NCBI GenBank assembly: GCA_023381755.1 | Contig: JAMCUF010000037.1 | Coordinates: 7,205 to 55,153 of the forward strand | Length of the DNA: 47,949 bases | DNA from: Deltaproteobacteria bacterium | GTDB lineage: Bacteria > SZUA-79 > Acidulodesulfobacterales > Acidulodesulfobacteraceae | Reading direction: 5' to 3' | Notes under the pieces: generated by a model | The model's database searches: none | Told to the model about the DNA's origin: nothing | Seen by the model: the letters and a program-made list of their open reading frames with translations, nothing else | Shown here: in pieces, positions 30,850 to 47,673 of the stretch | How positions within the stretch are numbered: the first letter of the stretch is position 1 | Layout of the letters: each line of letters begins with the position of its first letter | Translations under genes and position numbers: made by a program

Positions 30850-30905
30850 GCCGCTATAAAAAGTAAAAGTAATCAGTAATAATTGACAAAGCGGTAAAAT
30901 CAAAG

Positions 30906-33900
30906 ATGGACAATGCCCTAAAAAATAGACTGAACGCCTGCAGGATTGATAAATCTATCGCTTTAGTCGCACCGGCAGGCAGCGGAAAAACGACGGTATT
31001 AATTGCAAGAATCTTAACGCTTGCCGCATTCAAAGAGGATATAAATTCTATCGTGGCAATTACATATACGGATAACGCCGCCGCCGGCATCAAAGAAAGA
31101 ATAATCGAGGTTGCAAGACAGGTTTATGAAGATTATATTACATTGGAAGAGAACGGCAAAAAAGATGAATTTATATCCCTGAAGCTGATTTTTTATAATA
31201 GTTTTATAAAGTCTGAGGCCGGCAGGTCTGATGCAGGGATTAAAGACGAGCTTGATGATTTTATAAAAATTAATTTTAATTTTGTGAAACCAGATGAAGT
31301 CGGGCGTAATCCGGGGGGCCGCAGGACAGGCGAAGCTGGCCTCAATGCTGCTTTGCAGCATCGCGGCCCGTCAGACGGGAGCGGAAGCGGTAAGCTTTTG
31401 ACCCCCGTGGAGTTATACTTAACCGTGTTAAATAACCTTTCTAATATTAATATTTCCACTTTTCATGGTTTTTTTCACAAAATTATCAATCTTTTTCCGA
31501 TAGAAAGTGGATTGCTGCCCGGCTTTGGAATTATAGACGACAATGAGTCCGTATATATCAAAAAAAATTTAATAAATGAATTTTTTTTGACCCGTCTTTC
31601 AGGTTCTTTAGCATATACAAACTATACAAATGAAAATAAATACCATAGTCTCGAGCAAAGGCTTATAGATTTTTTCTATGTTTTTAACGATAGGAGCGTT
31701 AATTTTCAAAGAGGCGTGGATCTGGTTTTAAATTCCGTCCTGGAAAAATTCGATCTCGTCGTATATTCCATAAACCTGTTTATCGAAAATCTTAAACCCG
31801 GAATAGATTATTTTTATATTTTGAATTGCGATATAGGGCAGGTGTTAGATTTGGGAATAATCGAATATATATTTGCGCTGGAAGAAGATGATATCGCGCT
31901 TTTTAATAAAATTAAAGACAGTTTAGAAGATTTTGAAAATTTAATTTTAGAGTCTTTCGGTTTTTTATTTGAAAACGAAAATTCAAAAAAATTACTTGCC
32001 TTACTTGACAGGGCTTTATGCGAGTCCAAAAATGCGGCGGTAAAAGAGGGCTTAGAACTGCTAAGCCGAAACATTAAATTATTAGCCGCGGGCGGCGGCG
32101 GGGAAAATAAAGATATCAGATTTTTAATAAATTTATATAAAATTATCGGAAGCGGACTTGAAAAAATTAATTATTTTATAAATTTACATAAAACTCCTTT
32201 AATACTTAATAATAATGAAAAACATTTATTGAGTTTGCTTTATTCCGCATTCATGGATTTTTATAAAAAAGCAAATTTTTTAAATTACATAAGTTTTACG
32301 ATAGTAATATTTAAAATTATAAAGGAATATGAGGACAAAAAAAGGTCAAGAAATGTAGTAGATTTTTCCGGAATAGAATTTAAAACTTTAACGCTTTTAA
32401 ATTCGGCCAATTTTCAGTATATAGAAGAAAAACTGAACTACAGGCTTAATCACCTCGTAATAGATGAATTTCAGGACGCAAACAGAATAGAATTTGACAT
32501 TATTAAAAGAATGATGGATGAAAGATTATCGGGAATGGGTTTGAGCGGCGAAAAACCGGTAAAAGGAACGATATTTTTTGTCGGCGACCCCAATCAATCT
32601 ATTTACGGATTCAGAAGTTCGGATTATAAAATATTTAACGAAGCTATTTTATATTTTAAGTCCAAAATAAGTCCTGATTTTGGATTTGATGAGATTGTTT
32701 TAGAAGAAAATTTCAGGTCGACCAAAAAACTTATAGAATTTCAAAATTTAATCTTTTCGCATCCCTATTTTGAATGCTTGACCGGCGGCGCCGTAAATGT
32801 GTCACCTGGAAATAAAAATTCCGGCGGCATATGCAATCCGGATTTTTATCCCGTAATATTGAAGCTTTATAAAAACAGCAGAAACGAAAGTTTAGCGGGG
32901 CGGCCGGATAGCGATAGTTGCGGGGATAGCGAGGATTTATTGACAGCTTATGAAATCAGACGCCTGTTGGATTTTGGCAATAAAAACAATTTACCCCTTG
33001 CATCCCGTATAAAAATAGTTTCGAGGAAGCATCAGGGTAAAGATTGGGATAACCTTAAAAATGCCCTGGTTCAAAATAGCGTACCGTTTAAAATATACGG
33101 CGACAAGGGATTTTATGAAAAAAAAGAGATAGACTTGATAATATCTATTTTAAAATTTTTCTTTAACGGCAGGGACGAGCTGTCCATTTTTAAGGTTTTA
33201 AAAATTTTATCCAATACAAAATACAATGAAGCAATACCGCCTGAAACGGTAAACTTTGTAAAAACCGGATTTGAAAAACTTTTAAGGCTTACCGCCGCAA
33301 ATGAAAAAAATATTCAAATAAATAATCTATCCCCATATTCCATGTTAAAAAGAATTTATAGTATTTTTAATACTTACTCCTTGTATTCAAGCGATGCGCA
33401 GGCCCTTGCAAATCTGAAAAAATTATTGTTGATTGCGCAAAGTTATGACAGAACGACCGTTTACGAATTTTTAAGGGACTTAGAAGAGAGGATTAATCGG
33501 GGGTATAAAGAGCCGGAAGAGGAAGTCGATATTAAGGCGAAAGAACCGGGCAATGACGGTATGGATAACGGTAAAGTAAGTTTGATGACCATTCATGGGG
33601 CAAAAGGGCTTGAAAGCGACATCGTTTTTATATACGGCACATCTTTAAACCCTCCAGATAATAAAAAAAGCGGTCTCAGGTATAAATTTGATATAATTTT
33701 TAACGGAAACAGGCCCGAATTTATTTTGCTTAATGATAAATTAACAGATAATCCGCTGTCTTTAAAATCAGGATGGGGAAATAACCGGAAAATATCGGAT
33801 ATATTGGATAAAAAGAGGGAAAAAGAGATAACCAAGGAAGAAAACGAGTTTAAGCGGCTTATATATGTTGCTTTGACAAGGCCGAGGTTTTTGTGTTATA

Positions 33901-34163
33901 TAACAGACGAAGTTAAAGATAGTAATAAAAATAACAAAAATGGCGGAAATAGCGGGAGTATCGGGGCAGACGGAGCCGGTTCTGCGGCCGCGCCGGGCCC
34001 TGTTTCTTGGGCGGATATTCTTTGCGGGCAAAAAGACTTAACCCTGTTTGAGAACGCAAGAAAAATAAGAGAATTAGTCTTAACGTTAAAACCGGGAAAC
34101 GCCGATCAAACGGAGGACAGATTTGAAAAAATCGTTTCGTTTATTAAAAATAATTTCAAATGA
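30906..34163 (+). CDS. AddA-like UvrD/REP superfamily 1 helicase (no nuclease domain)
   Basis: A 1085-aa ATP-dependent 3'-5' DNA helicase, presumed partner of the AddB-like protein. SF1A motifs are intact: Walker A APAGSGKTT (22-30), motif Ia AITYTDNAAAGIKER, STFHGFF, Walker B VIDEFQDAN (Asp520), motif III GDPNQSIYGFR, motif IV ENFRST, motif V MTIHGAKGLE and motif VI YVALTRPR. It stops about 80 residues after motif VI, without the C-terminal RecB-like nuclease of classical AddA, so the complex would have a single nuclease site, in AddB. GC-rich palindromic (about 136-155) and Gly/Ser/Ala-rich (about 1005-1035) inserts are present. Confidence 0.93.
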   Translation: MDNALKNRLNACRIDKSIALVAPAGSGKTTVLIARILTLAAFKEDINSIVAITYTDNAAAGIKERIIEVARQVYEDYITLEENGKKDEFISLKLIFYNSFIKSEAGRSDAGIKDELDDFIKINFNFVKPDEVGRNPGGRRTGEAGLNAALQHRGPSDGSGSGKLLTPVELYLTVLNNLSNINISTFHGFFHKIINLFPIESGLLPGFGIIDDNESVYIKKNLINEFFLTRLSGSLAYTNYTNENKYHSLEQRLIDFFYVFNDRSVNFQRGVDLVLNSVLEKFDLVVYSINLFIENLKPGIDYFYILNCDIGQVLDLGIIEYIFALEEDDIALFNKIKDSLEDFENLILESFGFLFENENSKKLLALLDRALCESKNAAVKEGLELLSRNIKLLAAGGGGENKDIRFLINLYKIIGSGLEKINYFINLHKTPLILNNNEKHLLSLLYSAFMDFYKKANFLNYISFTIVIFKIIKEYEDKKRSRNVVDFSGIEFKTLTLLNSANFQYIEEKLNYRLNHLVIDEFQDANRIEFDIIKRMMDERLSGMGLSGEKPVKGTIFFVGDPNQSIYGFRSSDYKIFNEAILYFKSKISPDFGFDEIVLEENFRSTKKLIEFQNLIFSHPYFECLTGGAVNVSPGNKNSGGICNPDFYPVILKLYKNSRNESLAGRPDSDSCGDSEDLLTAYEIRRLLDFGNKNNLPLASRIKIVSRKHQGKDWDNLKNALVQNSVPFKIYGDKGFYEKKEIDLIISILKFFFNGRDELSIFKVLKILSNTKYNEAIPPETVNFVKTGFEKLLRLTAANEKNIQINNLSPYSMLKRIYSIFNTYSLYSSDAQALANLKKLLLIAQSYDRTTVYEFLRDLEERINRGYKEPEEEVDIKAKEPGNDGMDNGKVSLMTIHGAKGLESDIVFIYGTSLNPPDNKKSGLRYKFDIIFNGNRPEFILLNDKLTDNPLSLKSGWGNNRKISDILDKKREKEITKEENEFKRLIYVALTRPRFLCYITDEVKDSNKNNKNGGNSGSIGADGAGSAAAPGPVSWADILCGQKDLTLFENARKIRELVLTLKPGNADQTEDRFEKIVSFIKNNFK
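31316..31369 (+). repeat. cloverleaf-like GC-rich palindromic insert within addA
   Basis: An outer stem GGGCCGC (31316-31322) / GCGGCCC (31363-31369) encloses AGGC...GCCT and a perfect hairpin ATGCTGC-TTT-GCAGCAT (31345-31361). In frame it encodes GGRRTGEAGLNAALQHRGP. The AALQH stretch and its DNA (GCTGCTTTGCAGCATC) match the addB insert (GCCGCCTTGCAACATC) at 13 of 16 bases, suggesting a shared repeat family. Confidence 0.6.
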
Positions 34164-34290
34164 TTTTTAACGCTTTACCCCCGTAATATTTGACATTTTT
34201 TTAAAAGCAGACGATAATTATCGGAAAATGATTTTGACTTAATTATTGCGGTAAATAAAGCAGCAAATAGAAATTAATGAAAAGGGGATT

Positions 34291-36606
34291 ATGCTGTTGA
34301 AAAAAAATAACATAATACATCTTATAGAAGGCTTATTTTTAATTATTTTTATATTAGTTGCGGCTATTCTTTCGGTTTTTTCGGGTTTAATTCCCGTAAA
34401 AAATATTTATATTTTTAACATATCCATTTATATACCGGCCGCAGGCGCCATTATTACATCGTTTATCGGCATTTTATTTTTGTACTATATGAATAGATTC
34501 CGTAACTTGTTTTTAGTAGCCGGACAAGAATTTGAATTTTTTTTCCGGAACCTGCCGCTTCCTTCTTTTATTGTTGATATCGAAAGCGGCCGTTTTATAG
34601 ACGCCAATGCCAATGCCATAAAGTTTTACGGGTATCCAAAAGATGAGCTATTAAATATGGACATAAGCAGGATAAATATTTCTAACTCGCCTCAGGAGCT
34701 TAGGATTTTCAGGAGGGCAATGACTGGGAAGGGGGGCGGGATTGCTATTTTTAAACATAAGATTAAACACGGCGAAATAAAAATAGTCCAGTCCCATATA
34801 GCCGTAATTACATTAAACGGCAAACAGAGCCTATTGGTAATAATTTTAGATATAACCGAAAAAGTAGCAAACGAAAAATGGATGAATATTTTATATACGG
34901 GGATAGAAAACAGCCCCGATTGGATAATGGTAACCGATAGCCTTGGAAATATTGAATATGTCAATAAAGGCGTAGAAAATATAAGCGGATATAACAAGGA
35001 GGAGTTGATAGGGAAAAATCCGAGGATTTTTAAATCCGGGTTGCTTGGCGCCGAATTTTATAAAACCCTCTGGGATACAATCAATACGGGAGAAACCCTA
35101 AAAGGCGTTCTTATAGACAGAAGAAAAAACGGCGAATTGTTTACTCTAGACGCAACACTCGTTCCCATAAAAGGCAAAGAAGATTTTAACGTTATAAATT
35201 TTGTGTCCATAGCTAAGGATGTAACGCAGGAAAAGACCTTGGAAGAAAAAGTAAAATATATCTCGTTTTACGATCCCTTAACCAAACTTGCAAATAAGAA
35301 TCTCTTTACCTCTACCATTAACACTTACCTTGGCAGGAGGGAATACAAAGAGGAAGGGTTCAATGCTTCCGTTGTGATAGTTGACGTTTATAAGTTGTCC
35401 TATTTTAACAGTACTTATGGATATGACGCCGGGGACAAACTTTTGCAAAGCTTTTCGGAAAGATTAAGTAAAGTTATGAGAAGTGGGGATATGGTTTCCA
35501 GAGTGGGAGGGGATGAGTTTGGAATATTTTTTACGGAACTAAAAGGTAAAGAAGCTATTTTGCCGATATTAGAGAGAATAAAAGAAGAATTTAAGAAGCC
35601 GTTAAATATGGATGAAATTGGGCCTTTGGACGACAGTCCAAACAATATGTCATTTTTCGGAGAAGCTAAACCAAGGTCATTTAATCCTTCTTTTACCATA
35701 GGCATATCCATCTTCCCCGATGACGGAAAAAATGCGGATGATCTTTTAAAATCGGCGGATATTGCCCTTTCAAACGCAAAAGCGCAGGGGGAAGGAGAAT
35801 ATAAATTTTTTAAGAAGTCGATGAACGTTAAGGCATCGGAGTTTTTAGTCATGAAACATAATATAGTAAACGCGCTTAAAGATGAAGAATTCCTGATCTG
35901 TTATCAGCCTTATTTTGACATAAAAACGGGCAGGATGAAAGGCATGGAAGCTCTGGCAAGATGGAACAGTAAAAATATCGGCATGATACCCCCCGCGAAA
36001 TTTATACATATTCTTGAAGAGATGAAGCTCATACAGCAGTTTGAAGAATTTATGATAGATAAGGTTTGCAAGAATTTAAAGGAATGGGAAGAAAAAGGTC
36101 TTAGCGTCGCGCCTGTTTCTATGAACATATCGCCCGTTAGTTTTGGAAAAGAAGGCTTAATAGATATGACGTTTTCCGCATTAGACAGATACAAAATTAG
36201 TCCGTCAATGATTAACATTGAAATAACGGAAGGTCTATTTATACAAAACTTGCGTTATGCCGTTAAAATATTAAATATTTTTAAAGAAAAAGGAATCAAG
36301 ATTTTGCTGGATGATTTTGGCGCAGGTTATTCTTCCTTATCTTATATAAAAAATATACCCGCAGATTTTATTAAAATAGATATTTCATTTATAAAAGGCA
36401 TGGTGAAAAGCCCTAAAGACCTGGCAATAGTGAGTACCATCGTAGTTTTTGCTTCTAAATTAGGCATGAAAACTATCGGCGAAGGCGTGGAAACCAAAGA
36501 ACAGTTGGAAATATTAGAATCTTTAGGATGTGACATGGCTCAGGGATATTTATTTTCAAAACCTGTTCCGGAGAATGAACTTTTCCAGTTTTTAAAGCAG
36601 CCGTAA
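34291..36606 (+). CDS. membrane PAS-PAS-GGDEF-EAL cyclic-di-GMP protein
   Basis: A 771-aa signalling protein. Two N-terminal transmembrane helices (about residues 10-32 and 47-68) precede PAS domains at about 80-195 and 205-325 (NYVNKGVENISGYNKEELIGKNPR). The GGDEF domain has an intact GGDEF (406-410) preceded by an RSGD inhibitory I-site five residues before it, so active, product-inhibited diguanylate cyclase activity is expected. The EAL domain has EALARW (553-558), NISP, DDFGAGYSSLSYI and GEGVET, i.e. a complete phosphodiesterase site. Both activities are thus possible. It sits between addA and kdpF, and nothing shows what it senses. Confidence 0.95.
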   Translation: MLLKKNNIIHLIEGLFLIIFILVAAILSVFSGLIPVKNIYIFNISIYIPAAGAIITSFIGILFLYYMNRFRNLFLVAGQEFEFFFRNLPLPSFIVDIESGRFIDANANAIKFYGYPKDELLNMDISRINISNSPQELRIFRRAMTGKGGGIAIFKHKIKHGEIKIVQSHIAVITLNGKQSLLVIILDITEKVANEKWMNILYTGIENSPDWIMVTDSLGNIEYVNKGVENISGYNKEELIGKNPRIFKSGLLGAEFYKTLWDTINTGETLKGVLIDRRKNGELFTLDATLVPIKGKEDFNVINFVSIAKDVTQEKTLEEKVKYISFYDPLTKLANKNLFTSTINTYLGRREYKEEGFNASVVIVDVYKLSYFNSTYGYDAGDKLLQSFSERLSKVMRSGDMVSRVGGDEFGIFFTELKGKEAILPILERIKEEFKKPLNMDEIGPLDDSPNNMSFFGEAKPRSFNPSFTIGISIFPDDGKNADDLLKSADIALSNAKAQGEGEYKFFKKSMNVKASEFLVMKHNIVNALKDEEFLICYQPYFDIKTGRMKGMEALARWNSKNIGMIPPAKFIHILEEMKLIQQFEEFMIDKVCKNLKEWEEKGLSVAPVSMNISPVSFGKEGLIDMTFSALDRYKISPSMINIEITEGLFIQNLRYAVKILNIFKEKGIKILLDDFGAGYSSLSYIKNIPADFIKIDISFIKGMVKSPKDLAIVSTIVVFASKLGMKTIGEGVETKEQLEILESLGCDMAQGYLFSKPVPENELFQFLKQP

Positions 36607-36711
36607 AACCTTCAGTTTTATCTATTCAAAATTATGAATGATTATTTTTGTGATGTAAAATGTAATATATGAAAATTCAAATCTTTAAATTTTGAAGGGG
36701 AAAACAACGAA

Positions 36712-36798
36712 ATGATCGAGAACATTCTGCTTTTAATTGTTGCCGTCATCGTATTTATATATCTGATTTATGTGCTTTTATATCCCGATAAGTTTTAA
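36712..36798 (+). CDS. kdpF: potassium-transporting ATPase small subunit KdpF
   Basis: A 28-aa single-helix membrane peptide (MIENILLLIVAVIVFIYLIY then VLLYPDKF). The YLxYxLLxPxKF tail is the KdpF signature; KdpF stabilises the KdpABC complex. It is too short for standard gene callers. GAAGGGG precedes the ATG, with a 6-base hairpin (TTCAAA/TTTGAA) just upstream. It opens the kdp operon, 105 bases after the GGDEF-EAL gene. Confidence 0.88.
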   Translation: MIENILLLIVAVIVFIYLIYVLLYPDKF

Positions 36799-36848
36799 TC
36801 CGAACCTGTAAAAAATTATAAATTAATTTTGAAATAAGAGGTCGAATT

Positions 36849-36935
36849 ATGATTTATTTTATAGCCGGTCTGATAATTATTGGAATTTTTTACTGGATAA
36901 CGGCAATTTTTGTTGATTTTACGGATAAAATATAA
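36849..36935 (+). CDS. 28-aa single-helix membrane peptide in the kdp operon
   Basis: Reads MIYFIAGLIIIGIFYWITAI then FVDFTDKI, one hydrophobic helix with a charged C-terminus, preceded by AATAAGAGG, a fair ribosome-binding site nine bases upstream. It lies between kdpF and kdpA, 50 and 56 bases away. It lacks the KdpF tail motif. It has the same length and topology as KdpF and may be a diverged duplicate or a separate accessory peptide; its function is unknown. Confidence 0.6.
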   Translation: MIYFIAGLIIIGIFYWITAIFVDFTDKI

Positions 36936-36991
36936 AAAAACAGATTATACTAAATTAATAACGGTTAATAATTTTGCAAGGGGAGAGGCCC

Positions 36992-38716
36992 ATGACTTTT
37001 ACAGGAGTTTTTCAAATGGCAATAACTCTTTTAATTATGGTTATTGCGGCTATTCCGCTAAGCAGATACCTGTCGCACGTTTTTAACGGGGAAAAGACTT
37101 TTCTCGATTTTTTATTTACGCCGGTCGAAAATCTGACGTTTAGGTTTCTTAATGTAAACAAGAAAGAGGAAACGGACTGGGTAAGGTATTTAAAGACGGG
37201 TCTGATTATTAATTTCTTAATGCTGGCAATAGTTTATTTTATTTTAAAATTTCAAAACTATCTGCCCTTCAACCAGATGCGCTATAAAGGGCTTTCATGG
37301 GACCTTGATTTCAACACCGCTATAAGCTTTATAACCAATACGAACTGGCAAAATTACGGCGGGGAAGAGGTCTTATCAAATTTTTCCCAAATGGCGCTTG
37401 TTTTTTTACAGTTCACCTCTGCCGCCACCGGGCTTGTTTTTGCCGTCGCTTTTATCCGCGGGTTGGTGCGCCGCGAGGCAAAATACGTCGGTAATTTTTA
37501 CGTAGATTTTATTAAGGGCATTTACAGGCTTTTTCTTCCGTTGGCTATTTTATTTGCGGTTATTATGCTCTGGCAGGGGGCGCCGCAGACGTTTTCCATG
37601 CAAAAAAAGGTAACCAATATGACCGGGGTCAAACAGACGCTTTCAGTGGGACCGGTAGCCTCGATGACAGCAATAGAAAATCTCGGCACCAACGGAGGGG
37701 GATTTTACGACGCGAATGCCGCGCAGCCCTACGAAAATCCGAACCCTTTCACAAATGCTTTGATTATCTTTATGATGGGCACGATTCCTATCGCCCTGTT
37801 TTTGATGTACGGGATAATGATAGGGAATAAAAAGCATGCATGGACTTTATTTGCGGTCGCTATGACCCTCATCGTCGTCTGTCTTGCTGTGATTTATTCT
37901 CAAGAGGCGAGCGGCAACCCGTTTTTATCAAAGTTAGGCGCAAACATTCATGTTTCTAAAAATAATCCCGGCGGCAATATGGAAGGAAAGCAGGAGCATA
38001 TAGGAATTGCCCAGACATCCTTGTTTGCAACCGCTACGACGGCGTTCACCACCGGCAACGTTGACAGCGCCCACGACAGTTTTATGCCCCTTTCCGGCAT
38101 GATTCTTATGAGCGAAATGATGCTTAATCTTATATTCGGAGGGAAAGGGGTCGGTCTTTTGAATATGCTTACCATGGTGATAATAGGGGTGTTTATTGCA
38201 GGCCTTATGGTTGGGCGGACGCCGGAATTTCTCGGAAAAAAAATAGAGGCAAAGGAGGTTAAACTCGCAACACTTGCAATGTTTGCCCATGCGTTTATTA
38301 TTCTTATCCCTTTTGCGATAACCGTAGCGATACCTGCCGGTCTGGCGGAAATATTTAATCCGGGTCCGCACGGCTTAAGTGAGATTTTATACGCCTATAC
38401 CTCGACGGTAGCGAACAACGGATCCGCGTTCGCGGGTCTTAACGGCAACACGCTTTTTTATAATATTTCGCTCGGGCTTACGGTATTTTTCGGAAGGTAT
38501 GTTCCGATAATATGCCAGGTTGCGATAGCGGGTTCATTAATCAAAAAGAAAAGCATACCGGAGTCGGCAGGCACTTTTCCTGCCCACGGTCCTTTATTTT
38601 ATGCGGTTGTTATGGGGACTATACTGCTTGTCGGGGCGTTAACGTTCTTTCCGGCGCTGGCGCTTGGACCTATTGCGGAACATTTCGCAATGGCGGAAGG
38701 ACATTTATTTTATTAA
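36992..38716 (+). CDS. kdpA: potassium-transporting ATPase subunit A (channel-like)
   Basis: A 574-aa K+-translocating subunit of the high-affinity Kdp ATPase, with about ten membrane helices. The ATG at 36992 follows AAGGGGAGA by five bases and replaces an upstream TTG. The selectivity-filter segments are visible: FTSAATGLVFA, ENLGTNGGGFYDANAAQPYENP, TTAFTTGNVDSAHDS and STVANNGSAFAGLNGNT. PLSRYLSHVFNGEKTF is the usual N-terminal block. It is more GC-rich in codon third positions than the genes before 36.6 kb. It is followed by kdpC, not kdpB. Confidence 0.96.
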   Translation: MTFTGVFQMAITLLIMVIAAIPLSRYLSHVFNGEKTFLDFLFTPVENLTFRFLNVNKKEETDWVRYLKTGLIINFLMLAIVYFILKFQNYLPFNQMRYKGLSWDLDFNTAISFITNTNWQNYGGEEVLSNFSQMALVFLQFTSAATGLVFAVAFIRGLVRREAKYVGNFYVDFIKGIYRLFLPLAILFAVIMLWQGAPQTFSMQKKVTNMTGVKQTLSVGPVASMTAIENLGTNGGGFYDANAAQPYENPNPFTNALIIFMMGTIPIALFLMYGIMIGNKKHAWTLFAVAMTLIVVCLAVIYSQEASGNPFLSKLGANIHVSKNNPGGNMEGKQEHIGIAQTSLFATATTAFTTGNVDSAHDSFMPLSGMILMSEMMLNLIFGGKGVGLLNMLTMVIIGVFIAGLMVGRTPEFLGKKIEAKEVKLATLAMFAHAFIILIPFAITVAIPAGLAEIFNPGPHGLSEILYAYTSTVANNGSAFAGLNGNTLFYNISLGLTVFFGRYVPIICQVAIAGSLIKKKSIPESAGTFPAHGPLFYAVVMGTILLVGALTFFPALALGPIAEHFAMAEGHLFY

Positions 38717-38822
38717 ATTATGCATGCAGGATAAGGAAGATATAAAATGTTTATATTATACGGAGCCGCTTCGGTTATCTAAGTTATCCAAGCCGTAAAA
38801 TAATTTAAAGAGGATATTTATC

Positions 38823-39443
38823 ATGGGAAAGGAATTGATAAAAATGATAAAATTAACGGTTTTATTATATATTATATGCTCGCTTGGCTATACTTTTCTT
38901 ATCTGGGGCATAGGGAAAATAGCCTTTCCCTTTCAGGCAGGCGGAAGCATCGTTTATAAAAATTCAAAGCCGATCGGTTCGTTTTTGATAGGCGAGAAAT
39001 TTAGCAAGCCTTATCTTTTCAACGGCAGGCCGTCATATGCGGGCAACGGCTATAACGGAACGGAGTCGGGCGGTTCCAATTATGCTCCGACCAACGGAAA
39101 GTATATAAACCGCGAAAGAAAATTGATAAGTAAATTTTTAAAGGAAAATCCGACGGTTAAAAAGGGGCAGATTCCCGTCGATATAATAACCGGCTCCGGC
39201 TCCGGCCTCGGTCCCTATATATCCGTTGCGGCGGCATTAATTCAGGTGTCCAGAATATCCTCACTTACCGGCATATCCAAAAGCAAACTGGACGCTCTTG
39301 TAAAAAAAAGCATCTCTGGCAGGCAGTTCGGTATTTTTGGAACTCCCGGGGTCAATACGGTCAGGTTAAATTTTAAATTAGCCGCTATGCTTAAAAAGAA
39401 AAACAATAAAATATTTAAGAAAGTTTTTCGGGGGTTAGATTAA
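38823..39443 (+). CDS. kdpC: potassium-transporting ATPase subunit C
   Basis: A 206-aa periplasmic-facing subunit with one N-terminal membrane helix (about residues 10-32) that raises K+ affinity. The family blocks are present: SIVYKNSKPIGSFLIGEKFSKPYLFNGRPS, TESGGSNYAPTN, PVDIITGSGSGLGPYISVAAALIQVSRIS, and a short FGIFGTPGVNTVRLNF end. It sits between kdpA (106 bases upstream) and kdpB, an order different from the usual kdpFABC. The 106-base gap holds an 11-codon frame at 38747 with a Shine-Dalgarno-like AAGGAAG. Confidence 0.95.
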   Translation: MGKELIKMIKLTVLLYIICSLGYTFLIWGIGKIAFPFQAGGSIVYKNSKPIGSFLIGEKFSKPYLFNGRPSYAGNGYNGTESGGSNYAPTNGKYINRERKLISKFLKENPTVKKGQIPVDIITGSGSGLGPYISVAAALIQVSRISSLTGISKSKLDALVKKSISGRQFGIFGTPGVNTVRLNFKLAAMLKKKNNKIFKKVFRGLD

Positions 39444-39497
39444 TTATAATTAATAGATTAATAAAAGAACGGTTCAATAAAGTTGTGGGTAAATAAA

Positions 39498-41546
39498 ATG
39501 CCTCAAAAATCCTATTATGTTTCGGCATTCAGCAAAAAGATATTATCGTCGGCCATCCGCGATTCTTTTAAAAAGTTAAATCCTAAGGTGCTGATAAAAA
39601 ATCCCGTAATGTTTGTCGTAGAGATAGGCGCCGTTATTACGACCATTCTTTTGGTAAAAGATTTATTTCTTCATAATTTTAAGTTTATCTCGTTTATTTT
39701 TCAAATTACTATATGGCTCTGGTTCACGGTTTTATTCGCCAATTTTGCGGAAAGCATTTCCGAAGGCAGGGGCAAGGCGCAAGCCGATAGTTTAAGGAAG
39801 ACGAAGACGGAAGTTATCGCAAGACTATTAAAAATAAACGGCAGAGAGGAAAAAATAAAGGCGTCGCAGTTAAGAAAGGGGGACGTAATAATAGCCGAAA
39901 CGGGGGATACGATACCTGCCGACGGCGAAATTATAGAAGGAATAGCATCGGTTGACGAATCCGCAATTACCGGAGAATCCGCTCCAGTTATAAGGGAAAG
40001 CGGTGGGGACAGAAGCGCGGTAACTGGAGGAACTAAAGTTTTATCGGATAAGATTCTAATCAAAGTAACGTCAAATCCGGGCGAAGGTTTTATAGATAAA
40101 ATGATATCGCTAGTCGAAGGCGCATCGCGCCAGAAAACGCCGAATGAAATCGCTTTAAATATTTTATTGGTTGTACTCACGGCGTTATTCCTTGTGGTTG
40201 TCGTTACTATTACCCCGATGGCGGGATATTTTCACGGCTATATATCTCCGGTAATACTCGTGGCCCTGCTTGTGTGCCTTATTCCCACCACTATCGGCGC
40301 ATTGCTTTCCGCCATCGGAATTTCGGGGATGGACAGGCTCGTCAAACATAACGTAATAGCCATGTCGGGTAAGGCGGTAGAAGCCGCGGGAGACGTTAAT
40401 ACGCTTTTGCTCGATAAAACCGGAACCATAACATTCGGCAACAGAATGGCCGTAAGTTTTATTCCCGCGCCGGGAGTAAACGTAAACGAGCTTGCCGACT
40501 ATGCACAGCTTTCTTCTTTAAGTGATGAAACTCCGGAGGGCAGGTCTATCGTTACCCTTGCCAAACAATACGGTTTGAGGGGGAGACATATCGACGAAAA
40601 AAATGTCAAATTTATTCCTTTTTCCGCTATGACAAGAATGAGCGGGGTGGATATTGCGGATAAAAAAGAGTCTGTTAGAAAAGGGGCGGTGGAAGCGGTT
40701 GTGAAATTCGTAGAGCAAAATAAGGGAACGGTCGATAAAAATACCATAAAAAATGCGGAAGAAATTTCAAAAAAAGGGGGAACGCCGCTTGCGGTCGCAA
40801 TTAATAACCGCATGCTCGGGATTATTCATTTAAAAGACGTTGTTAAAGGGGGTATTAAGGAGCGGATTAACAGTTTAAGAAAAATAGGGATTAAAACCAT
40901 AATGATAACGGGAGATAATCCGTTAACCGCAAAAGCCATTGCCGACGAAGCCGGGGTTGACGAGTTTGTCGCCGAGGCCACTCCCGAAACAAAGATGGCT
41001 ATTATTAAGAAGGAACAGGGGTTAGGCAAGTTGATCGCAATGACGGGTGATGGAACAAATGATGCGCCTGCTTTAGCTCAGGCGGATGTCGGTGTTGCCA
41101 TGAATACCGGAACCATGCCTGCAAAAGAGGCGGGGAATATGATAGACCTTGATTCTAATCCTACAAAATTGATAGAGATAGTAGAAATAGGAAAACAGCT
41201 TTTAATAACCCGCGGCTCATTAACCACTTTTTCCATTGCCAATGATGTTGCAAAGTATTTTGCCATAATACCGGCAATGTTTGCGCCGGTTTTCCCATGG
41301 CTTGCCCCGCTTAACATCATGGGACTGTCGTCTCCCGGGTCGGCTATACTTTCAGCCGTGATATTTAATGCGGTAATAATTATCATACTTGTTCCGCTTG
41401 CCTTGCGCGGCGTTAAATACAAACCCGCCGCCGCATCGTCCATCTTGACGAGGAATCTTCTTATTTACGGCTTTGGCGGGTTGATAGTGCCCTTCATAGG
41501 CATAAAGCTGATAGATATTATTATAACCTACCTGCATCTTGTTTAA
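39498..41546 (+). CDS. kdpB: potassium-transporting P-type ATPase subunit B
   Basis: The catalytic P-type ATPase subunit of Kdp. The phosphorylated Asp lies in DKTGTIT (40413), with [18 protein letters not shown] and [21 protein letters not shown] all intact. The ATG at 39498 was preferred over an in-frame TTG at 39483 because KdpB proteins usually begin a few residues before the KKLNP block (here RDSFKKLNP at about 24). Neither start has a good Shine-Dalgarno. It is the last of the Kdp structural genes here; 54 bases separate it from kdpC. No kdpE lies next to it. Confidence 0.95.
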
Positions 41547-41855
41547 TGAAGATGGGAAGACCGAAAAAGAGGGAGCAGGCATTAATATCGAGTTAATATC
41601 AAGGTTTGCCTCCTGCCTTTCTTGTTTTATGCCTGCATGCCTATAAAATATGCAAATACGGTTGATAATTTTTTATTGATTAATATGCAGGCATATTTAG
41701 GCCGCTTTTGATATAAAATTCGATATAAAATGTAATAAAATTAATAACTTCTAAATATGGCATTTTAATTGCATTATAACTCATTAAATTAAAATAAGTT
41801 AAAAAGATAACCTGAATTTAAATTTTGCGTAGAAGAGCGTAGAAGAGGAGATGTC
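41547..41855. promoter_or_regulatory. kdpB-porin intergenic region with an 11-base inverted repeat
   Basis: A 309-base gap. TATGCCTGCAT (41628-41638) is matched by its complement ATGCAGGCATA (41685-41695), about 46 bases apart. A GCAGG/CCTGC pair (41574-41615) upstream could be a weak kdpB terminator. No paired promoter boxes were convincing. A ribosome-binding site AGAGGAGA precedes the porin ATG. The repeat may be a hairpin or a binding site. Confidence 0.4.
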
Positions 41856-43262
41856 ATGAATTTTAATGATCTAAAGTTAAAACGATTAAAACCATTTTTA
41901 TTTACCGTGATTTTTGCGGTATTTTTATTAAGCCCTTATTTTTTTGCGTTAAAATCTTATGCCGGCAACGTTTCGCCTTCGTCTTCCGGCAGTTCCGGAC
42001 AGCAGGTAAAAAGCCTCGAAGCTAAATTAAATAACCTCTCCAATGAAATTAACGCCTTAAGGAAGGCACAGCGGAAAGGTTCGAACTCTTATTTTTCTTC
42101 CGTCCAGCTGCTCGGCACATTAGTCGCGTCTTATACTTACAATTTTGCAAAGCCGAACGGTTATAACGCTAATTACGGCGATAACTGGCAGGAAGGCGGT
42201 TTTACGGTTAATCAAGCCGATATTACCATAAGAAGATCGCCAGGCAGCGCGTCTGATCCTTACGGCGTAGGTTTTCATATATCGCTTGACGCGGGTCAGA
42301 ATATCCAGTTTTATGAGGCGTATTACGGCAACACGTCTTATTTTACCGCGCCGTTTCAGCAAAGAATACCTTTTGACGTCAGGCAGGCTTATATCAATTT
42401 GAACTTGCCCGTCGGAAGCGGGTTAGATATTCACATAGGCAAAGAAAAGGAGCTGTTAGGCTGGGAAAATTTTAACATGACAAGGAACTGGAACAACACA
42501 TATTCTTTATTGGATAATGCCGAGCCTTCGACATATACGGGAATATTTTTTACGTATAATGTTATTCCAAGCCTGCAAACGACGTTCGGTATAGCAAATT
42601 CGCAAAATACCGTTGTGCCGGCAGACAACCTTCCGACCGTCGAATTTAACGCGGCATATACCCCCCTCGGCGTCATCACGTTTAACGGCGGGTTCGTTTA
42701 CGGAGCAAACAGCTACCTCGTTGAGAACAATGGTGCGATGTATCAGGATAATATAAATAAAAGTATTTATAGCTATATAAATGCGGTATATAGCCCGACT
42801 GCCGGCTGGTCGTTCGTTCTTGAACGCGATGCGGGATTAAACGGCGGATTAAACAAAAGCGTGTTAATTTCCAACGGGATAACCCCGGGTCAGGTTGCAT
42901 ATCCCGCACTTATATCATCAACCGTCTCAACTTACTCTAAGGGGTATTTTAACGGAACATCCTTTTATATCCATCATCAGCATAACTATTCAATCGGTCA
43001 GATTGCCGAGACGTTAAGGGAGGCTTTCGCGGTTGATTCTAACGGTTTATTCGAGCCGGGCGTAACCCCGGGACAAACGTATGCCTTTGTCGATTCTACC
43101 TTAACGCTGGCTTATTCTCCGGCATATAAGATGCTTAAAGATGTGCAGTTTAGATTAGAATTCGAAAATCAAAGGGCAAATCACTCTATATATCCGGCAG
43201 GGTTAAATAGTCTGAAAAGATCGCAGAATACAGCGAGTCTTGCCGTGTTATACACATTTTAA
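41856..43262 (+). CDS. outer-membrane beta-barrel porin
   Basis: A 468-aa exported protein. The signal peptide is long (about residues 1-36, ending FFALKSYAGN). A Ser/Gly segment and a short coiled coil (VKSLEAKLNNLSNEINALRKAQ) follow, as in trimeric porins. The rest has the alternating pattern of a beta-barrel (FDVRQAYINLNLPVGSGLDIHIGKEKELLG, SLQTTFGIANSQNTVV) and ends in a C-terminal Phe (ASLAVLYTF), the outer-membrane insertion signal. It resembles the OmpL-like beta-barrel porin-2 family. It sits between kdpB and the KdpD-like gene, suggesting a link to ion entry; the substrate is unknown. Confidence 0.85.
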   Translation: MNFNDLKLKRLKPFLFTVIFAVFLLSPYFFALKSYAGNVSPSSSGSSGQQVKSLEAKLNNLSNEINALRKAQRKGSNSYFSSVQLLGTLVASYTYNFAKPNGYNANYGDNWQEGGFTVNQADITIRRSPGSASDPYGVGFHISLDAGQNIQFYEAYYGNTSYFTAPFQQRIPFDVRQAYINLNLPVGSGLDIHIGKEKELLGWENFNMTRNWNNTYSLLDNAEPSTYTGIFFTYNVIPSLQTTFGIANSQNTVVPADNLPTVEFNAAYTPLGVITFNGGFVYGANSYLVENNGAMYQDNINKSIYSYINAVYSPTAGWSFVLERDAGLNGGLNKSVLISNGITPGQVAYPALISSTVSTYSKGYFNGTSFYIHHQHNYSIGQIAETLREAFAVDSNGLFEPGVTPGQTYAFVDSTLTLAYSPAYKMLKDVQFRLEFENQRANHSIYPAGLNSLKRSQNTASLAVLYTF

Positions 43263-43308
43263 GACATTTTAAAGCTAAAAACATTTTAAAACTTTCGCTT
43301 TCGATTTC

Positions 43309-43346
43309 AAAAGCTCTGCTTATAAAAGGCAGGGCTTTTGTTTTTC
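43309..43346 (+). terminator. rho-independent terminator after the porin gene
   Basis: AAAAGCTCTGC (43309-43319) pairs with GCAGGGCTTTT (43329-43339), one position being G-U, and is followed by GTTTTT. It lies 47 bases after the porin stop and would end the porin transcript before kdpD. Confidence 0.75.
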
Positions 43347-43366
43347 ACGGCTATTTATACCCTAAT

Positions 43367-43409
43367 CCTGCCCTAACCCTCCCCCGTCAAGGGGGAGGGT
43401 TAGGGCAGG
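43367..43409. repeat. 19-base perfect inverted repeat
   Basis: CCTGCCCTAACCCTCCCCC (43367-43385), a 5-base loop GTCAA and the exact complement to 43409. C/G-rich elements of this CCCTAACCCTCCCCC type are common dispersed intergenic repeats in bacterial genomes. It sits just after the porin terminator, inside a 289-base gap (43263-43551). Confidence 0.8.
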
Positions 43410-43551
43410 GGCGGGGAGCTATGAGAAATAATTATTTTCCAATGCAAGATTAAGGCTGCATATTTCGGATTAATGATGAAATGTATTATAATATTATAGT
43501 AATATAATTTGGCTTTAAATTTTGAAAAGTGAAAGCGGGGTATAAATTTCT

Positions 43552-44709
43552 TTGAACATCGAATCTAACAGACCGTCGGCTGAATCGATACTTAATAAAA
43601 TAAAGTATTCTTCCAGCGGTACAAATATCTTTAGGGTTTATCTCGGGTCAGCTCCGGGTACGGGCAAAACTTATATGATGCTTGAGGACGGCAATTATCT
43701 GAACGGCCACGCCATAGACGTCGTAATAGGTTTTGTCGAAACCCACGGAAGAAAAGAAACGGCGGACGAGATAGGAAAACTTGAAATAGTCCCAAGGAAA
43801 AAAATATATTACAAAGGGGTTGAATTTGAAGAACTCGACGCCGACGCCGTTATGGCAAGGCATCCAAACATTGCACTAATAGATGAACTTGCCCATAATA
43901 ACATTCCGGGTTCTAAAAATCTAAAAAGGTATCAGGACGCCATCGAAATATATAAAGCCGGCATCAATGTTTTTACTACGTTAAATATATTTCATCTTAA
44001 TTCTATTGCAGAAAAGGTGGAATCGGAGCTCGGGATAAAAGTAAGCGAAAGGGTTCCCGATTATATATTGAGTTATGTTACCGAAATCATCAATGTCGAT
44101 ATTCCCGCGGGCGAACTTATAAACAGATTAAGGGGAGGCAAAATTTATTCCAAAGAAAAAGTTCCTGTTGCGCTGGAAAACTTTTTTAAACTTGAAAATC
44201 TTTTAGTATTGAGAGAACTTGCCTTAAGAACCGTTGCCGATGAGCTCAGCACGCAATCTACCGAAATAGGAAATCCGGAGGAAAAACTTGAGTTAAAATC
44301 AAACGAAAGGGTCCTAGTTTTAATAAGTTCCAATCCTGATTCGGCAAGGCTCGTAAGAATAGGTTCGAAACTTGCCGGAAGGCTCAACTCAAATCTTTAT
44401 GTTCTCCATATAAACTTAAAAAGCAGGAATAAGAATAAGCCCGAAAACTATGATCAGGCGCTTGCAAAAAATATCTCCATAGCCGAGAATCTTGGCGCCG
44501 CAGTTTTCAGTTTTCAGGCAAACGATATAGTATCGGGAGTCATAGATTTTATTAAAAGCAATAACATCTCCCATGTTGTTATAGGCGCTACAAATGAAAA
44601 GGCCGGTTTAATAAGTAAATTTTTAAAACAAAGCATAGTGAATAAGTTAATTGACGGCCTTCCCAACGTATCCTTTCATGTTGTTCCGACCACATCCGCT
44701 TCAATTTAA
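43552..44709 (+). CDS. KdpD-type sensor lacking a histidine kinase (KdpD + USP domains)
   Basis: A 385-aa protein matching only the N-terminal third of KdpD. The KdpD nucleotide-binding domain (about residues 25-235) has Walker A GSAPGTGKT (32-40), GFVETHGRKET, NIALIDELAHNNIPGSKN and TTLNIFHLNSI. A universal-stress-protein domain (about 250-380, VLVLISSNPDSARLVRIG, HVVIGATNEK) follows. There are no transmembrane helices, no HisKA or HATPase domain and no kdpE. It could regulate Kdp by direct binding or with a distant kinase, as proposed for short KdpD proteins elsewhere. The TTG start at 43552 is the only reasonable one and has a weak GCGGGG ribosome-binding site. Confidence 0.9.
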   Translation: MNIESNRPSAESILNKIKYSSSGTNIFRVYLGSAPGTGKTYMMLEDGNYLNGHAIDVVIGFVETHGRKETADEIGKLEIVPRKKIYYKGVEFEELDADAVMARHPNIALIDELAHNNIPGSKNLKRYQDAIEIYKAGINVFTTLNIFHLNSIAEKVESELGIKVSERVPDYILSYVTEIINVDIPAGELINRLRGGKIYSKEKVPVALENFFKLENLLVLRELALRTVADELSTQSTEIGNPEEKLELKSNERVLVLISSNPDSARLVRIGSKLAGRLNSNLYVLHINLKSRNKNKPENYDQALAKNISIAENLGAAVFSFQANDIVSGVIDFIKSNNISHVVIGATNEKAGLISKFLKQSIVNKLIDGLPNVSFHVVPTTSASI

Positions 44710-44766
44710 TAAAATCTGATAAAAATTGATGTTATAATTGTTATATAATAATATAAATTAAATAAT

Positions 44767-47673
44767 ATGGGTAATATGGGTATTGGTAATATGGGCGAAA
44801 CCGATAATACTTATAGTAATACTTACAGGAACAAAACATCGGGGGATATTGCGGAAGCAAAGCCCAAAGCAGATGCCTTCGGCACAAGCGGCTTGCGGGG
44901 AGGGGGGAGCGCCAGAACGATAGCCGGCATTATAAAAAGGGTTGTATTTCAAAATACGGAAACCGGTTTCACCATTCTTAATGTTTTTTCAAACGGCAAG
45001 TTTATAACCGCATCGGGCGTATTTTTTGACAAGCCGCTAATAGATTTGAAAATAAAGTTGAAAGGACAATTTGCATACCATAAAAAATACGGCTATCAGT
45101 TTAATTTTACCCAGTATGAAAGCTCAGCGTCAAACACAAGAACGGCAATAATCGAATACTTATCGTCGAATATTTTTAAAGGGATAGGAAGAGCTACCGC
45201 CGGTAAGATTTATGAAAAATTCAAAGAAAAGACATTGGACATAATAGATAATGAACCGGAAAGACTTAGGGACGTTAATGGAATAGGCGCGGTTAAACTC
45301 GGCACCATTTTGGAAGGGCTTAAGGAAAGTTACGGTTTAAGAAAAGCCGTAATGTTTTTTAAACCGTATCAGTTTAGCGACTACCAGATTAAAGCCGTTT
45401 ATAATCAATTTCAGGATAAATCGGTCTTAATTGCGAAGGAAAACCCGTATTTGTTTACCGAGATAAAGGGGATAGGGTTTAAAAAGGCGGATATTATGGC
45501 AGAAAAGTTGGGCATAAAGAGGAATGACCCCAACAGGGTTAAAGAAGCCATAAAATATATTATTAACCAGATTTGCGAGAGTTCCGGAAACTCTTATGTT
45601 TACTATAGGGATATCATGGATGGGATTAAAGAAATCATAGGGGATTTAAAGGAATTTGATCTGAAAAATTATCTGAACGATTTGATAAAGGAAAAAAAGA
45701 TATTATTGGATTTCAAGGAAGCTCCGGGGTTTAAATGCTTTGCCGGCGGAGGCGCCTCGGATTTTAGTAATGTTAAAGATGATAATCAAATAAGGCATGT
45801 AAGGATATACCTGCCGGTTTATTATTACTGCGAGCTGGGAGCGGCAAAAGAGTTGAAAAGGATTGCGAAATACGTGAAGCCGGTTGCGGAAAACGATATT
45901 TACCCGGACGGTGGCAATAACAACGGCAATAATAATGCAAACGCAAATGCCAGCGAAGAGCAGGCCAATGCCAACCCATTCCGGCAGGCCGCGCCTAACC
46001 CGCCGCCAATCCCAAATAAAACTTTATCGGCAGAGGCCTTGGATAAATATCTCGAGCGCGATGAAAATAGAATATCCCTTACGGAAGAACAAAAAATTGC
46101 GGTATTAAACGCCTTACGATATAAAGTTTCCATTATATCCGGGGGCCCCGGCACGGGAAAATCCACCGTAATAAAGACTATTGTAAACTTATGCAAAGAG
46201 AAAAAGATAGCCCTGACCTCATTATCCGGAAAGGCGGCACAAAGGCTTTCGGATATCGTAAACCCGGAGCATGCGGAAGATACCGGAAACGGGACGGATA
46301 TTTCGACCATTCACAGGCTTTTAAAGGCGCAGTATGACAGGCAGACTAACGAATCTTTTTTTACTTATAATGAAAACAACAGGCTTCCGCACGACCTTAT
46401 TGTTATAGATGAAATGAGTATGGTTGATGTAATCATTTTTTATAAATTGTTGAAAGCCGTAAAGGATGCCGCAAATTTAGTTTTTGTGGGAGACGTAAAT
46501 CAAATACCGTCGGTTAGCCCGGGCGATGTTTTGAGGGATTTAATATATTCCGATCCCGGCGACCGCTTTAAAATCAAGACATTTTTTCCGGTAACGTTCT
46601 TAACAAAGGTATTCAGGCAAAACGAGGGTGGCTTGATAAATATAAACGCTCATAACCTTTTAAGCAACAAAGGGTTTATAACCTCCAAAAAGAGCGCCGG
46701 CAAGGGCGAAAGCACCGCACCTGCCGGAAGCGCCGGCGACGGTTCATTTATAATTAAATATAAAAGAGAATACGACGCGCCCAAAGAGGGGAAAAATGAG
46801 CTTTTAAAAGATTTTACCCTTTTTGTTAAAAGGGTCAGCGACAAAAGGATTGGTAAAAAAACGGATAATGCCGGAGATGCGCATGCAGCAATGAGACCCG
46901 CCGCCGGCCTTGCGGTTCCGGTAAGTATCTTCGACGATATCCAGATTCTTACCCCTATGAGGAAAGGGGATTTAGGGTATTTTAACCTGAATAATGTGTT
47001 GCAGGATATATTCAACCCCTTGCCGGCAGCGGGATCTGCCGAAGATATCTTTATTTGTAACGGCGTTCAGTTTAGATTATACGATAAGGTGATGCAGAAA
47101 AAAAATAATTACGACTTTGATGTATTTAACGGCGATACGGGTTATATAGTCGATATCGACCACGCGGCAAAAAGCTTAACCGTTAATTTTTCAAATTATG
47201 GGAATTTTGCTGAAGATAAAAATAAAACCGGCAGCAAGTTTCGAAGCAACTTCACGAGCGTCGTCAGACACCGGAACAGGGCGGTAAACTTTATGGATGC
47301 CGGCAGGCGCATGCCGGATATGCACGCTTGTCAAAACAGCGCTTTAATAAGCACCGGGAATGAAGGGGCGGTAAAATTGGTTAAATATGACTTTCTGGAT
47401 ATTTTCGAGAATATATCGCTGGCATACGCCCTTTCGATTCATAAGGCTCAAGGCAGTGAATTTGATAATGTCATTATATTATTTCATCAGGCCCACTATT
47501 TGATGTTAAAGAAAAATTTATTATATACGGCTATTACCAGGGGAAAGAAAAATGTTGTTATCTTTGGAACGTTTAGGGCATTTAGCATTGCTATAAATTC
47601 AAAGGAAGAGGTAAGGAATTCTGGATTAAAAGACAGGCTTTTGGATGAATACGGAATAAATAATTTTTTATGA
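44767..47673 (+). CDS. recD2: RecD2-type SF1B DNA helicase
   Basis: A 968-aa 5'-3' helicase of the stand-alone RecD2 family, active in recombination and replication-fork repair. The N-terminal OB-like and helix-hairpin-helix part (IIKRVVFQNTETGFTILNV, FKGIGRATAGKIYEKF, NPYLFTEIKGIGFKKAD) is followed by helicase motifs: Walker A GGPGTGKST (about 459-467), STIHRLLK, VIDEMSMVD, GDVNQIPSVSPG, FRQNEGG, and C-terminal SIHKAQGSEFD and YTAITRGKKN. Low-complexity inserts lie at about 382-415 (Asn/Ala/Pro-rich) and 640-660. The first ~45 residues (MGNMGIGNMGE) are unusual and the true start may be downstream. It has no RecB/RecC partners here. Confidence 0.94.
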   Translation: MGNMGIGNMGETDNTYSNTYRNKTSGDIAEAKPKADAFGTSGLRGGGSARTIAGIIKRVVFQNTETGFTILNVFSNGKFITASGVFFDKPLIDLKIKLKGQFAYHKKYGYQFNFTQYESSASNTRTAIIEYLSSNIFKGIGRATAGKIYEKFKEKTLDIIDNEPERLRDVNGIGAVKLGTILEGLKESYGLRKAVMFFKPYQFSDYQIKAVYNQFQDKSVLIAKENPYLFTEIKGIGFKKADIMAEKLGIKRNDPNRVKEAIKYIINQICESSGNSYVYYRDIMDGIKEIIGDLKEFDLKNYLNDLIKEKKILLDFKEAPGFKCFAGGGASDFSNVKDDNQIRHVRIYLPVYYYCELGAAKELKRIAKYVKPVAENDIYPDGGNNNGNNNANANASEEQANANPFRQAAPNPPPIPNKTLSAEALDKYLERDENRISLTEEQKIAVLNALRYKVSIISGGPGTGKSTVIKTIVNLCKEKKIALTSLSGKAAQRLSDIVNPEHAEDTGNGTDISTIHRLLKAQYDRQTNESFFTYNENNRLPHDLIVIDEMSMVDVIIFYKLLKAVKDAANLVFVGDVNQIPSVSPGDVLRDLIYSDPGDRFKIKTFFPVTFLTKVFRQNEGGLININAHNLLSNKGFITSKKSAGKGESTAPAGSAGDGSFIIKYKREYDAPKEGKNELLKDFTLFVKRVSDKRIGKKTDNAGDAHAAMRPAAGLAVPVSIFDDIQILTPMRKGDLGYFNLNNVLQDIFNPLPAAGSAEDIFICNGVQFRLYDKVMQKKNNYDFDVFNGDTGYIVDIDHAAKSLTVNFSNYGNFAEDKNKTGSKFRSNFTSVVRHRNRAVNFMDAGRRMPDMHACQNSALISTGNEGAVKLVKYDFLDIFENISLAYALSIHKAQGSEFDNVIILFHQAHYLMLKKNLLYTAITRGKKNVVIFGTFRAFSIAINSKEEVRNSGLKDRLLDEYGINNFL

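What the first reader, a model, noticed from the sequence alone, without database searches (positions are those of the whole stretch)
43552..44709. KdpD that keeps the sensor and USP domains but has no kinase, membrane part or KdpE
The protein ends after the USP domain. A KdpD/KdpE pathway cannot run from this locus by phosphotransfer. In several groups short KdpD proteins occur next to kdp, and the USP domain of some KdpDs binds c-di-AMP, so direct or ligand-dependent control is possible here.
Basis: partly seen in the sequence, partly recalled or inferred. Interest (0 to 1): 0.55.

Follow-up and report, generated by a model that had tools for sequence, protein, structure and literature searches.

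The report
Short KdpD, a potassium-pump brake
A potassium-pump locus from an acid-loving bacterium carries a shortened control protein that probably switches the pump off by phosphorylating it; this kind of brake is already known, but in this bacterial group most relatives also control the pump genes with an RNA switch for the messenger molecule thought to trigger the brake.

Summary
ORF 43552-44709 is a complete 385-residue KdpD: N-terminal KdpD domain plus USP domain, no membrane part, no histidine kinase, no kdpE nearby. It is not a frameshift: 21 of 30 family genomes have KdpD, none longer than 404 residues, and the KdpD membrane domain is over cut-off in 0 of 30.

The architecture is published (PMC11018627): the 'sensor' domain is an atypical serine kinase that inhibits the pump at KdpB Ser162, and a short Deinococcus KdpD is stimulated by c-di-AMP. 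The Walker motifs, adenine-contact Arg and the TGES target are present here. So this is a new member of a known kind.

The less expected part: the family (relatives of Ca. Acididesulfobacter) has a diadenylate cyclase in 27 of 30 genomes, and 14 of 17 readable kdp leaders carry a c-di-AMP riboswitch with a terminator. That pairing was reported as seemingly restricted to Bacillales (PMC6488665). The window's own locus lacks the riboswitch.

Against: the USP domain meets 1 of 5 positions of the Firmicutes c-di-AMP motif, and this incomplete assembly lacks the cyclase. Nothing was tested at the bench.

The parts
43552..44709 (+). short kdpD (KdpD + USP domains, 385 aa)
43630..44244 (+). KdpD domain PF02702 (residues 27-231), published serine-kinase domain
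   Evidence: function from PMC11018627 for homologues
43645..43674 (+). Walker A GSAPGTGKT and the Tyr at the E. coli Trp39 place (residues 32-41)
43876..43896 (+). Walker B LIDELAH (Asp111, Glu112)
44122..44139 (+). NRLRGG, holding Arg192, the E. coli Arg190 place
44305..44694 (+). USP domain (about residues 252-381)
   Evidence: borders from the predicted strands
44323..44343 (+). USP loop ISSNPDS, identical in 20 of 20 family rows that reach it
39483..41546 (+). kdpB; TGES target serine is Ser166 (39978-39980)
38823..39443 (+). kdpC, placed between kdpA and kdpB
36974..38716 (+). kdpA (start probably the ATG at 36992)
36712..36798 (+). kdpF, 28 aa (PF09604 over cut-off)
36849..36935 (+). 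second 28-aa hydrophobic ORF, found in 15 of 17 family leaders, no Pfam match
41856..43262 (+). BBP2 porin-like gene between kdpB and kdpD
43308..43340 (+). terminator-like hairpin between the porin gene and kdpD (such sites number about what shuffles give)

Best explanation
The gene encodes a stand-alone atypical serine kinase with a USP input domain that acts as a post-translational brake on the Kdp pump. When potassium is ample, a ligand bound by the USP domain, most likely c-di-AMP, activates the Walker A/B domain to phosphorylate KdpB on the TGES serine (Ser166 here, Ser162 in E. coli) and stop K+ uptake. No KdpE or histidine kinase is needed. Shown here: domain make-up, conserved catalytic and target residues, co-occurrence with the pump, a diadenylate cyclase in most of the family, c-di-AMP riboswitches on most relatives' kdp leaders. 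Published for homologues, not shown here: the kinase reaction and its stimulation by c-di-AMP. Inferred: that this USP binds c-di-AMP and that this species makes it.
For: Architecture. Walker A G-x5-GKT, aromatic residue after it, Walker B DE and Arg190 in 21 of 21 family rows; TGES in 19 of 19 family KdpBs compared. PMC11018627 shows the reaction for E. coli KdpD residues 1-230 and c-di-AMP stimulation for the short D. geothermalis KdpD. All 20 genomes with kdpB are among the 21 with kdpD. No PF13493 over cut-off in 30 genomes; no KdpE among 8 of 44 regulators scanned, which include every PF00486 protein of five kdp-bearing genomes. Diadenylate cyclase in 27 of 30 genomes. c-di-AMP riboswitch upstream of kdpF in 14 of 17 leaders read. 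USP loop ISSNPDS identical in 20 of 20 rows.
Against: No activity was tested. Firmicutes c-di-AMP motif met at 1 of 5 positions, from an alignment that is itself weak (E 0.046). No diadenylate cyclase in the window's own assembly, although the neighbouring genes of relatives' cdaA, glmM included, are missing there too. The window lacks the riboswitch. Trp39 is Tyr, as in four other short KdpDs. NF038185 is under its cut-off.
Confidence: 0.65

Rival explanations
1. The same serine-kinase brake on KdpB, but the USP domain answers to another ligand (AMP, ATP, another nucleotide) or to a partner protein.
For: Only 1 of 5 positions of the Firmicutes c-di-AMP motif is met; USP structures with AMP, dAMP and cAMP are also among the Foldseek hits; the window's leader has no c-di-AMP riboswitch.
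Against: Best USP hit is the c-di-AMP-bound KdpD USP 7ji4; the family has the cyclase and kdp riboswitches; the D. radiodurans short KdpD, a relative of the c-di-AMP-responsive D. geothermalis one, also lacks most of the motif.
Confidence: 0.22
2. The short KdpD works in transcription: it is a sensing module for an unlinked two-component system that drives kdp.
For: In D. radiodurans, Anabaena and Alicyclobacillus kdp expression is reported to depend on a separate two-component system while the short chain stays in the operon (PMC11018627, discussion). G000 has two histidine kinases.
Against: The OmpR-type regulators of five kdp-bearing genomes are PhoB-like or OmpR/MtrA/YycF-like, and PhoB-like ones also occur in kdp-less G001 and G005. 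In B. thuringiensis, which has a 365-aa KdpD, deleting kdpD did not change kdp expression (PMC6488665, passages). The catalytic residues of the serine kinase would be kept for nothing.
Confidence: 0.08
3. A decaying remnant of a full-length KdpD without function.
For: The membrane and histidine-kinase parts are absent.
Against: Open reading frame and 73-87% identity to 20 relatives, named catalytic residues kept in 21 of 21 rows, same length range in copies whose ends are seen, presence wherever kdpB was found.
Confidence: 0.02

Closest known systems
Short KdpD/Usp serine kinase of Deinococcus geothermalis (DgKdpD, Q1J2K3; PMC11018627)
   Same: KdpD + Usp domains only, no membrane, GAF or histidine-kinase part; gene beside the pump genes in the short-KdpD Deinococcota relatives read here
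   Different: The DgKdpD sequence was not obtained. The D. radiodurans and Allomeiothermus relatives align over the length with other USP loop residues; kdp gene order differs (A-C-B with a porin gene here)
E. coli KdpD (b0695), N-terminal half
   Same: Walker A, Walker B, Arg190 place and KdpB TGES target
   Different: E. coli KdpD goes on with membrane, GAF and histidine-kinase domains and works with KdpE (PMC11018627); Trp39 is Tyr here
Bacillus thuringiensis BMB171 kdp (c-di-AMP riboswitch plus 365-aa KdpD, no kdpE; PMC6488665)
   Same: Short KdpD without KdpE; in 13 of 16 family genomes read, also a c-di-AMP riboswitch with a terminator before kdpF
   Different: Another phylum; the window's own locus has no riboswitch
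S. aureus KdpD USP domain (7ji4; PMC8214093)
   Same: Nearest solved USP structure to the model
   Different: Firmicutes c-di-AMP motif met at 1 of 5 positions; S. aureus KdpD is a full histidine kinase

Membership tests
Short KdpD/Usp serine kinase (PMC11018627) | KdpD and Usp domains only, histidine kinase absent | tested here: met
   Usp by Pfam just under cut-off, by fold 7ji4
Short KdpD/Usp serine kinase (PMC11018627) | Walker A G-x5-GKT, Walker B DE, adenine-contact pair Trp39/Arg190 | tested here: met
   Walker A, Walker B and Arg in 21 of 21 family rows; the Trp place is Tyr or Phe, as Tyr in four other short KdpDs
Short KdpD/Usp serine kinase (PMC11018627) | KdpB target Glu161-Ser162 (TGES) | tested here: met
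   19 of 19 family KdpBs and E. coli
Short KdpD/Usp serine kinase (PMC11018627) | Phosphorylates KdpB and inhibits the pump | not testable with these tools
   needs a bench assay
Short KdpD/Usp serine kinase (PMC11018627) | No KdpE in the genome | tested here: inconclusive
   none in G000 (no PF00486) but it is incomplete; 8 of 44 family regulators scanned, KdpE model never best
NCBIfam NF038185 KdpD_non_kinase | Score over the curated cut-off of 550 bits | tested here: not met
   best model but 348.6 bits
c-di-AMP-binding KdpD USP of Firmicutes (PMC8214093) | Motif (A/G/C)xSxSx2N ... (Y/F) | tested here: not met
   Leu257, Ser259, Asn261, Ser264, His286; only Ser259 fits
c-di-AMP-controlled short KdpD | Diadenylate cyclase in the genome | tested here: inconclusive
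   0 in G000 with the relatives' cdaA region missing there; 27 of 30 family genomes have it, 19 of 19 good ones
kdp operon under a c-di-AMP riboswitch (RF00379; PMC6488665) | Aptamer upstream of kdpF in the window | tested here: not met
   found in 14 of 17 leaders of the family
KdpDE two-component system | Membrane part, histidine kinase and KdpE | tested here: not met

The most novel reading that the evidence does not exclude
In this family of uncultured acidophiles (relatives of Ca. Acididesulfobacter) c-di-AMP governs the whole Kdp system at two levels: an OFF riboswitch before kdpF and a c-di-AMP-triggered serine-kinase brake on KdpB, a pairing reported as seemingly restricted to Bacillales. 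The window's genome carries a kdp block without the riboswitch, a natural experiment that leaves the brake as the only kdp-specific control found there.
Probability: 0.5. Interest if true: 0.5.

Novelty: new member of a known kind. Interest (0 to 1): 0.35.

Why it matters
It places the serine-kinase-only KdpD in an uncultured acidophile group for which K+ uptake by Kdp has been proposed as a defence against acid (PMC6776010, one passage seen), and it puts the pairing of a kdp c-di-AMP riboswitch with a short KdpD outside Bacillales. The riboswitch-less loci (window, G007, G012) would let the transcriptional and the post-translational arm be compared.

Tried and rejected
Frameshift or hidden kinase half: rejected. 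KdpE among the regulators: not found in 8 of 44 scanned; the other 36 were not scanned. A c-di-AMP riboswitch in the window: none at gathering threshold in the whole window, none up to E 5 in 30000-45000 or in L095; the best R1 match in the window has 15.1 bits, E 0.41, on the minus strand at 43276-43347. Absence of the cyclase from G000 as real: not accepted, because a DNA search with 7.6 kb of G002 around cdaA gave only two short matches of 53 and 40 bases and the best GlmM match is 28% identical. The exact 14-mer before kdpF and kdpD does not stand at those places in relatives; dropped. AlphaFold model weak, used only as fold support. The KdpD tree is not resolved: window with G002 p-AU 0.20, with G007 support 32. 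Large contributions of the bias correction (48-56 bits) stand beside the R1 scores of the insert-bearing leaders I looked at, and the whole-genome search splits these aptamers into weaker pieces of 28-42 bits; I still count them because the conserved core and the terminator are present.

Literature searches. No listed title or abstract start described a kdp riboswitch with short KdpD in this group. PMC6488665 states that putative c-di-AMP riboswitches before K+ transporter genes, kdp among them, had been predicted in several phyla, so a kdp riboswitch outside Firmicutes is not claimed as unheard of.

The identity range was mended from 74-87% to 73-87%.

Full report
WHAT IS THERE. The ORF 43552-44709 is complete, 385 residues, and its stop lies 57 bases before recD2. 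Residues 27-231 are the KdpD domain PF02702 (E 7.5e-77); the C-terminal part matches Usp just under Pfam's cut-off. A weak AlphaFold model (mean pLDDT 56.5) has as its best solved neighbours 2r8r, the KdpD N-terminal region, and 7ji4, the c-di-AMP-bound KdpD USP domain of S. aureus. Upstream lie kdpF, a second 28-aa ORF, kdpA, kdpC, kdpB and a BBP2 porin-like gene.

NOT A TRUNCATION ACCIDENT. Of 30 genomes of the family, 21 have PF02702. No frame is longer than 404 residues; four are cut by contig ends at the 3' side and one begins at a contig edge. All 20 genomes with kdpB (E up to 1e-150) are among these 21; the 21st, G014, has its kdpD at the edge of a 3,083-base contig. The kdp counts are lower bounds: G016, for instance, has a kdpA behind a riboswitch although no kdpB or kdpD was found. 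The KdpD membrane domain PF13493 is over cut-off in 0 of 30. One relative is Ca. Acididesulfobacter diazotrophicus (its contig of 131,013 bases equals that of G009). NCBI's taxonomy puts the genus in Ca. Acidulodesulfobacteriota. That the window belongs to the same family rests on the tool's kinship labels.

NO TWO-COMPONENT PARTNER FOUND. G000 has two histidine kinases, one beside an NtrC-type regulator and one PAS-HisKA protein; the third HATPase hit is GyrB. OmpR-type regulators (PF00486) occur in 26 of 30 family genomes, 44 matches in all. I scanned 8 of the 44, among them every such protein of the kdp-bearing G002, G007, G012, G018 and G027. Five have PhoB as best NCBIfam model and three MtrA, OmpR or YycF, each under its cut-off; the KdpE model is never best; the regulator of G018 sits beside an ArsS-family kinase over its cut-off. 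PhoB-like ones also occur in G001 and G005, where no kdp was found.

HOW IT MOST LIKELY WORKS. PMC11018627 (abstract, passages, section 8 and the first part of section 9 seen) shows that the KdpD domain of E. coli is an atypical serine kinase that phosphorylates KdpB Ser162 and inhibits the pump at high K+, and that a short KdpD/Usp protein of D. geothermalis does so under c-di-AMP. Here Walker A, an aromatic residue after it (Tyr or Phe in place of Trp39), the Walker B pair and Arg190 are kept in 21 of 21 family rows, and TGES in 19 of 19 KdpBs. Tyr at that place is also seen in the short KdpDs of D. radiodurans, Allomeiothermus and two cyanobacteria. The kinase reaction is thus inferred with good support, not shown.

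THE LIGAND. A diadenylate cyclase is found in 27 of 30 family genomes and in 19 of 19 that are at least 90% complete with at most 5% contamination. In G002 it is CdaA (TIGR00159 over cut-off) beside a YbbR protein; its neighbours look like ftsH, folP and glmM, names recalled from the sequence, not from a scan. G000 has none, but that stretch and a close glmM are missing from the 877-kb assembly. Against c-di-AMP: the motif of PMC8214093 (abstract and passages seen) is met at 1 of 5 positions in the HMMER alignment to 7ji4, itself weak (E 0.046). The motif may not carry over, since the D. radiodurans short KdpD also lacks most of it. The D. geothermalis sequence was not obtained.

RIBOSWITCH IN THE RELATIVES. 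RF00379 is over its gathering score in 9 of 17 kdpA-upstream regions from 16 genomes. Five further kdp-bearing genomes (G008, G013, G014, G015, G027) were left out because the region was not in the contig. A covariance model R1 built from those nine adds five regions, all of genus g2, which carry long insertions (40-72 bits, E 8e-8 to 2e-16). So 14 of 17 leaders, 13 of 16 genomes. A whole-genome search with R1 finds matches in 16 of 30 genomes. In 14 of 14 leaders a terminator TAATAGCC...GGCTATT with 5-7 further T lies between aptamer and kdpF, and its 5' arm UAAUAGC is complementary to GCUAUUA at the aptamer's 3' end, as expected of a ligand-OFF switch. The leaders are homologous, so these are not 14 independent cases, and the search string came from the sequences seen. 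PMC6488665 (passages and section 11 seen) found 12 of 2,990 species with both a kdp riboswitch and KdpD, all truncated, and the riboswitch-controlled kdp seemingly restricted to Bacillales. The window, G007 and G012 lack the riboswitch.

THE WINDOW'S KDP BLOCK LOOKS EXCHANGED. KdpB of the window groups with G007 (SH-aLRT 95) and a clade with the same-genus G002 is rejected (p-AU 0.000175; the group was named after identities had been seen). RecD2 is nearest to G002 (71% against 51% for G007). DNA similarity to G007 begins at 36699, just before kdpF. The kdpD tree does not resolve. A kdp block that arrived without its riboswitch would fit; a replacement in the G002 line would too.

VERDICT. The protein fits a published kind, the serine-kinase-only short KdpD. 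The less expected part is the family-wide union with a c-di-AMP riboswitch outside Bacillales, which the window's own locus has lost or never had.

Noticed in passing
window 36849-36935: A second 28-aa hydrophobic ORF between kdpF and kdpA, with a similar one in 15 of 17 family leaders (14 by pattern plus the window; not found in G017 and G019). No Pfam match. Possibly an extra small pump subunit.
   Followed up: partly
window 36974-41546: kdp gene order is A-C-B rather than A-B-C, in the window and in 18 of 18 family loci that show all three genes.
   Followed up: partly
window 41856-43262: A BBP2 porin-like gene stands between kdpB and kdpD, also in G004, G007, G009 and G011, and next to kdpD in G015.
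   Followed up: no
window 36683-36696 and 43513-43526: The same 14-mer CTTTAAATTTTGAA stands exactly upstream of kdpF and of kdpD, and nowhere else in the window without mismatch; not at those places in relatives.
   Followed up: partly
window 43552-43554: The TTG start of kdpD is kept at the aligned start in 17 of 19 relatives listed (G018 has ATG; the G026 frame is listed with an earlier TTG), which may keep expression low.
   Followed up: no
window 36699-43291: The kdp-porin block is nearer to another genus (G007) than to the same-genus G002, while recD2 beside it follows G002.
   Followed up: partly
window 34291-36606: A PAS-GGDEF-EAL gene ends 105 bases before kdpF, where most relatives have the riboswitch leader.
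   Followed up: no
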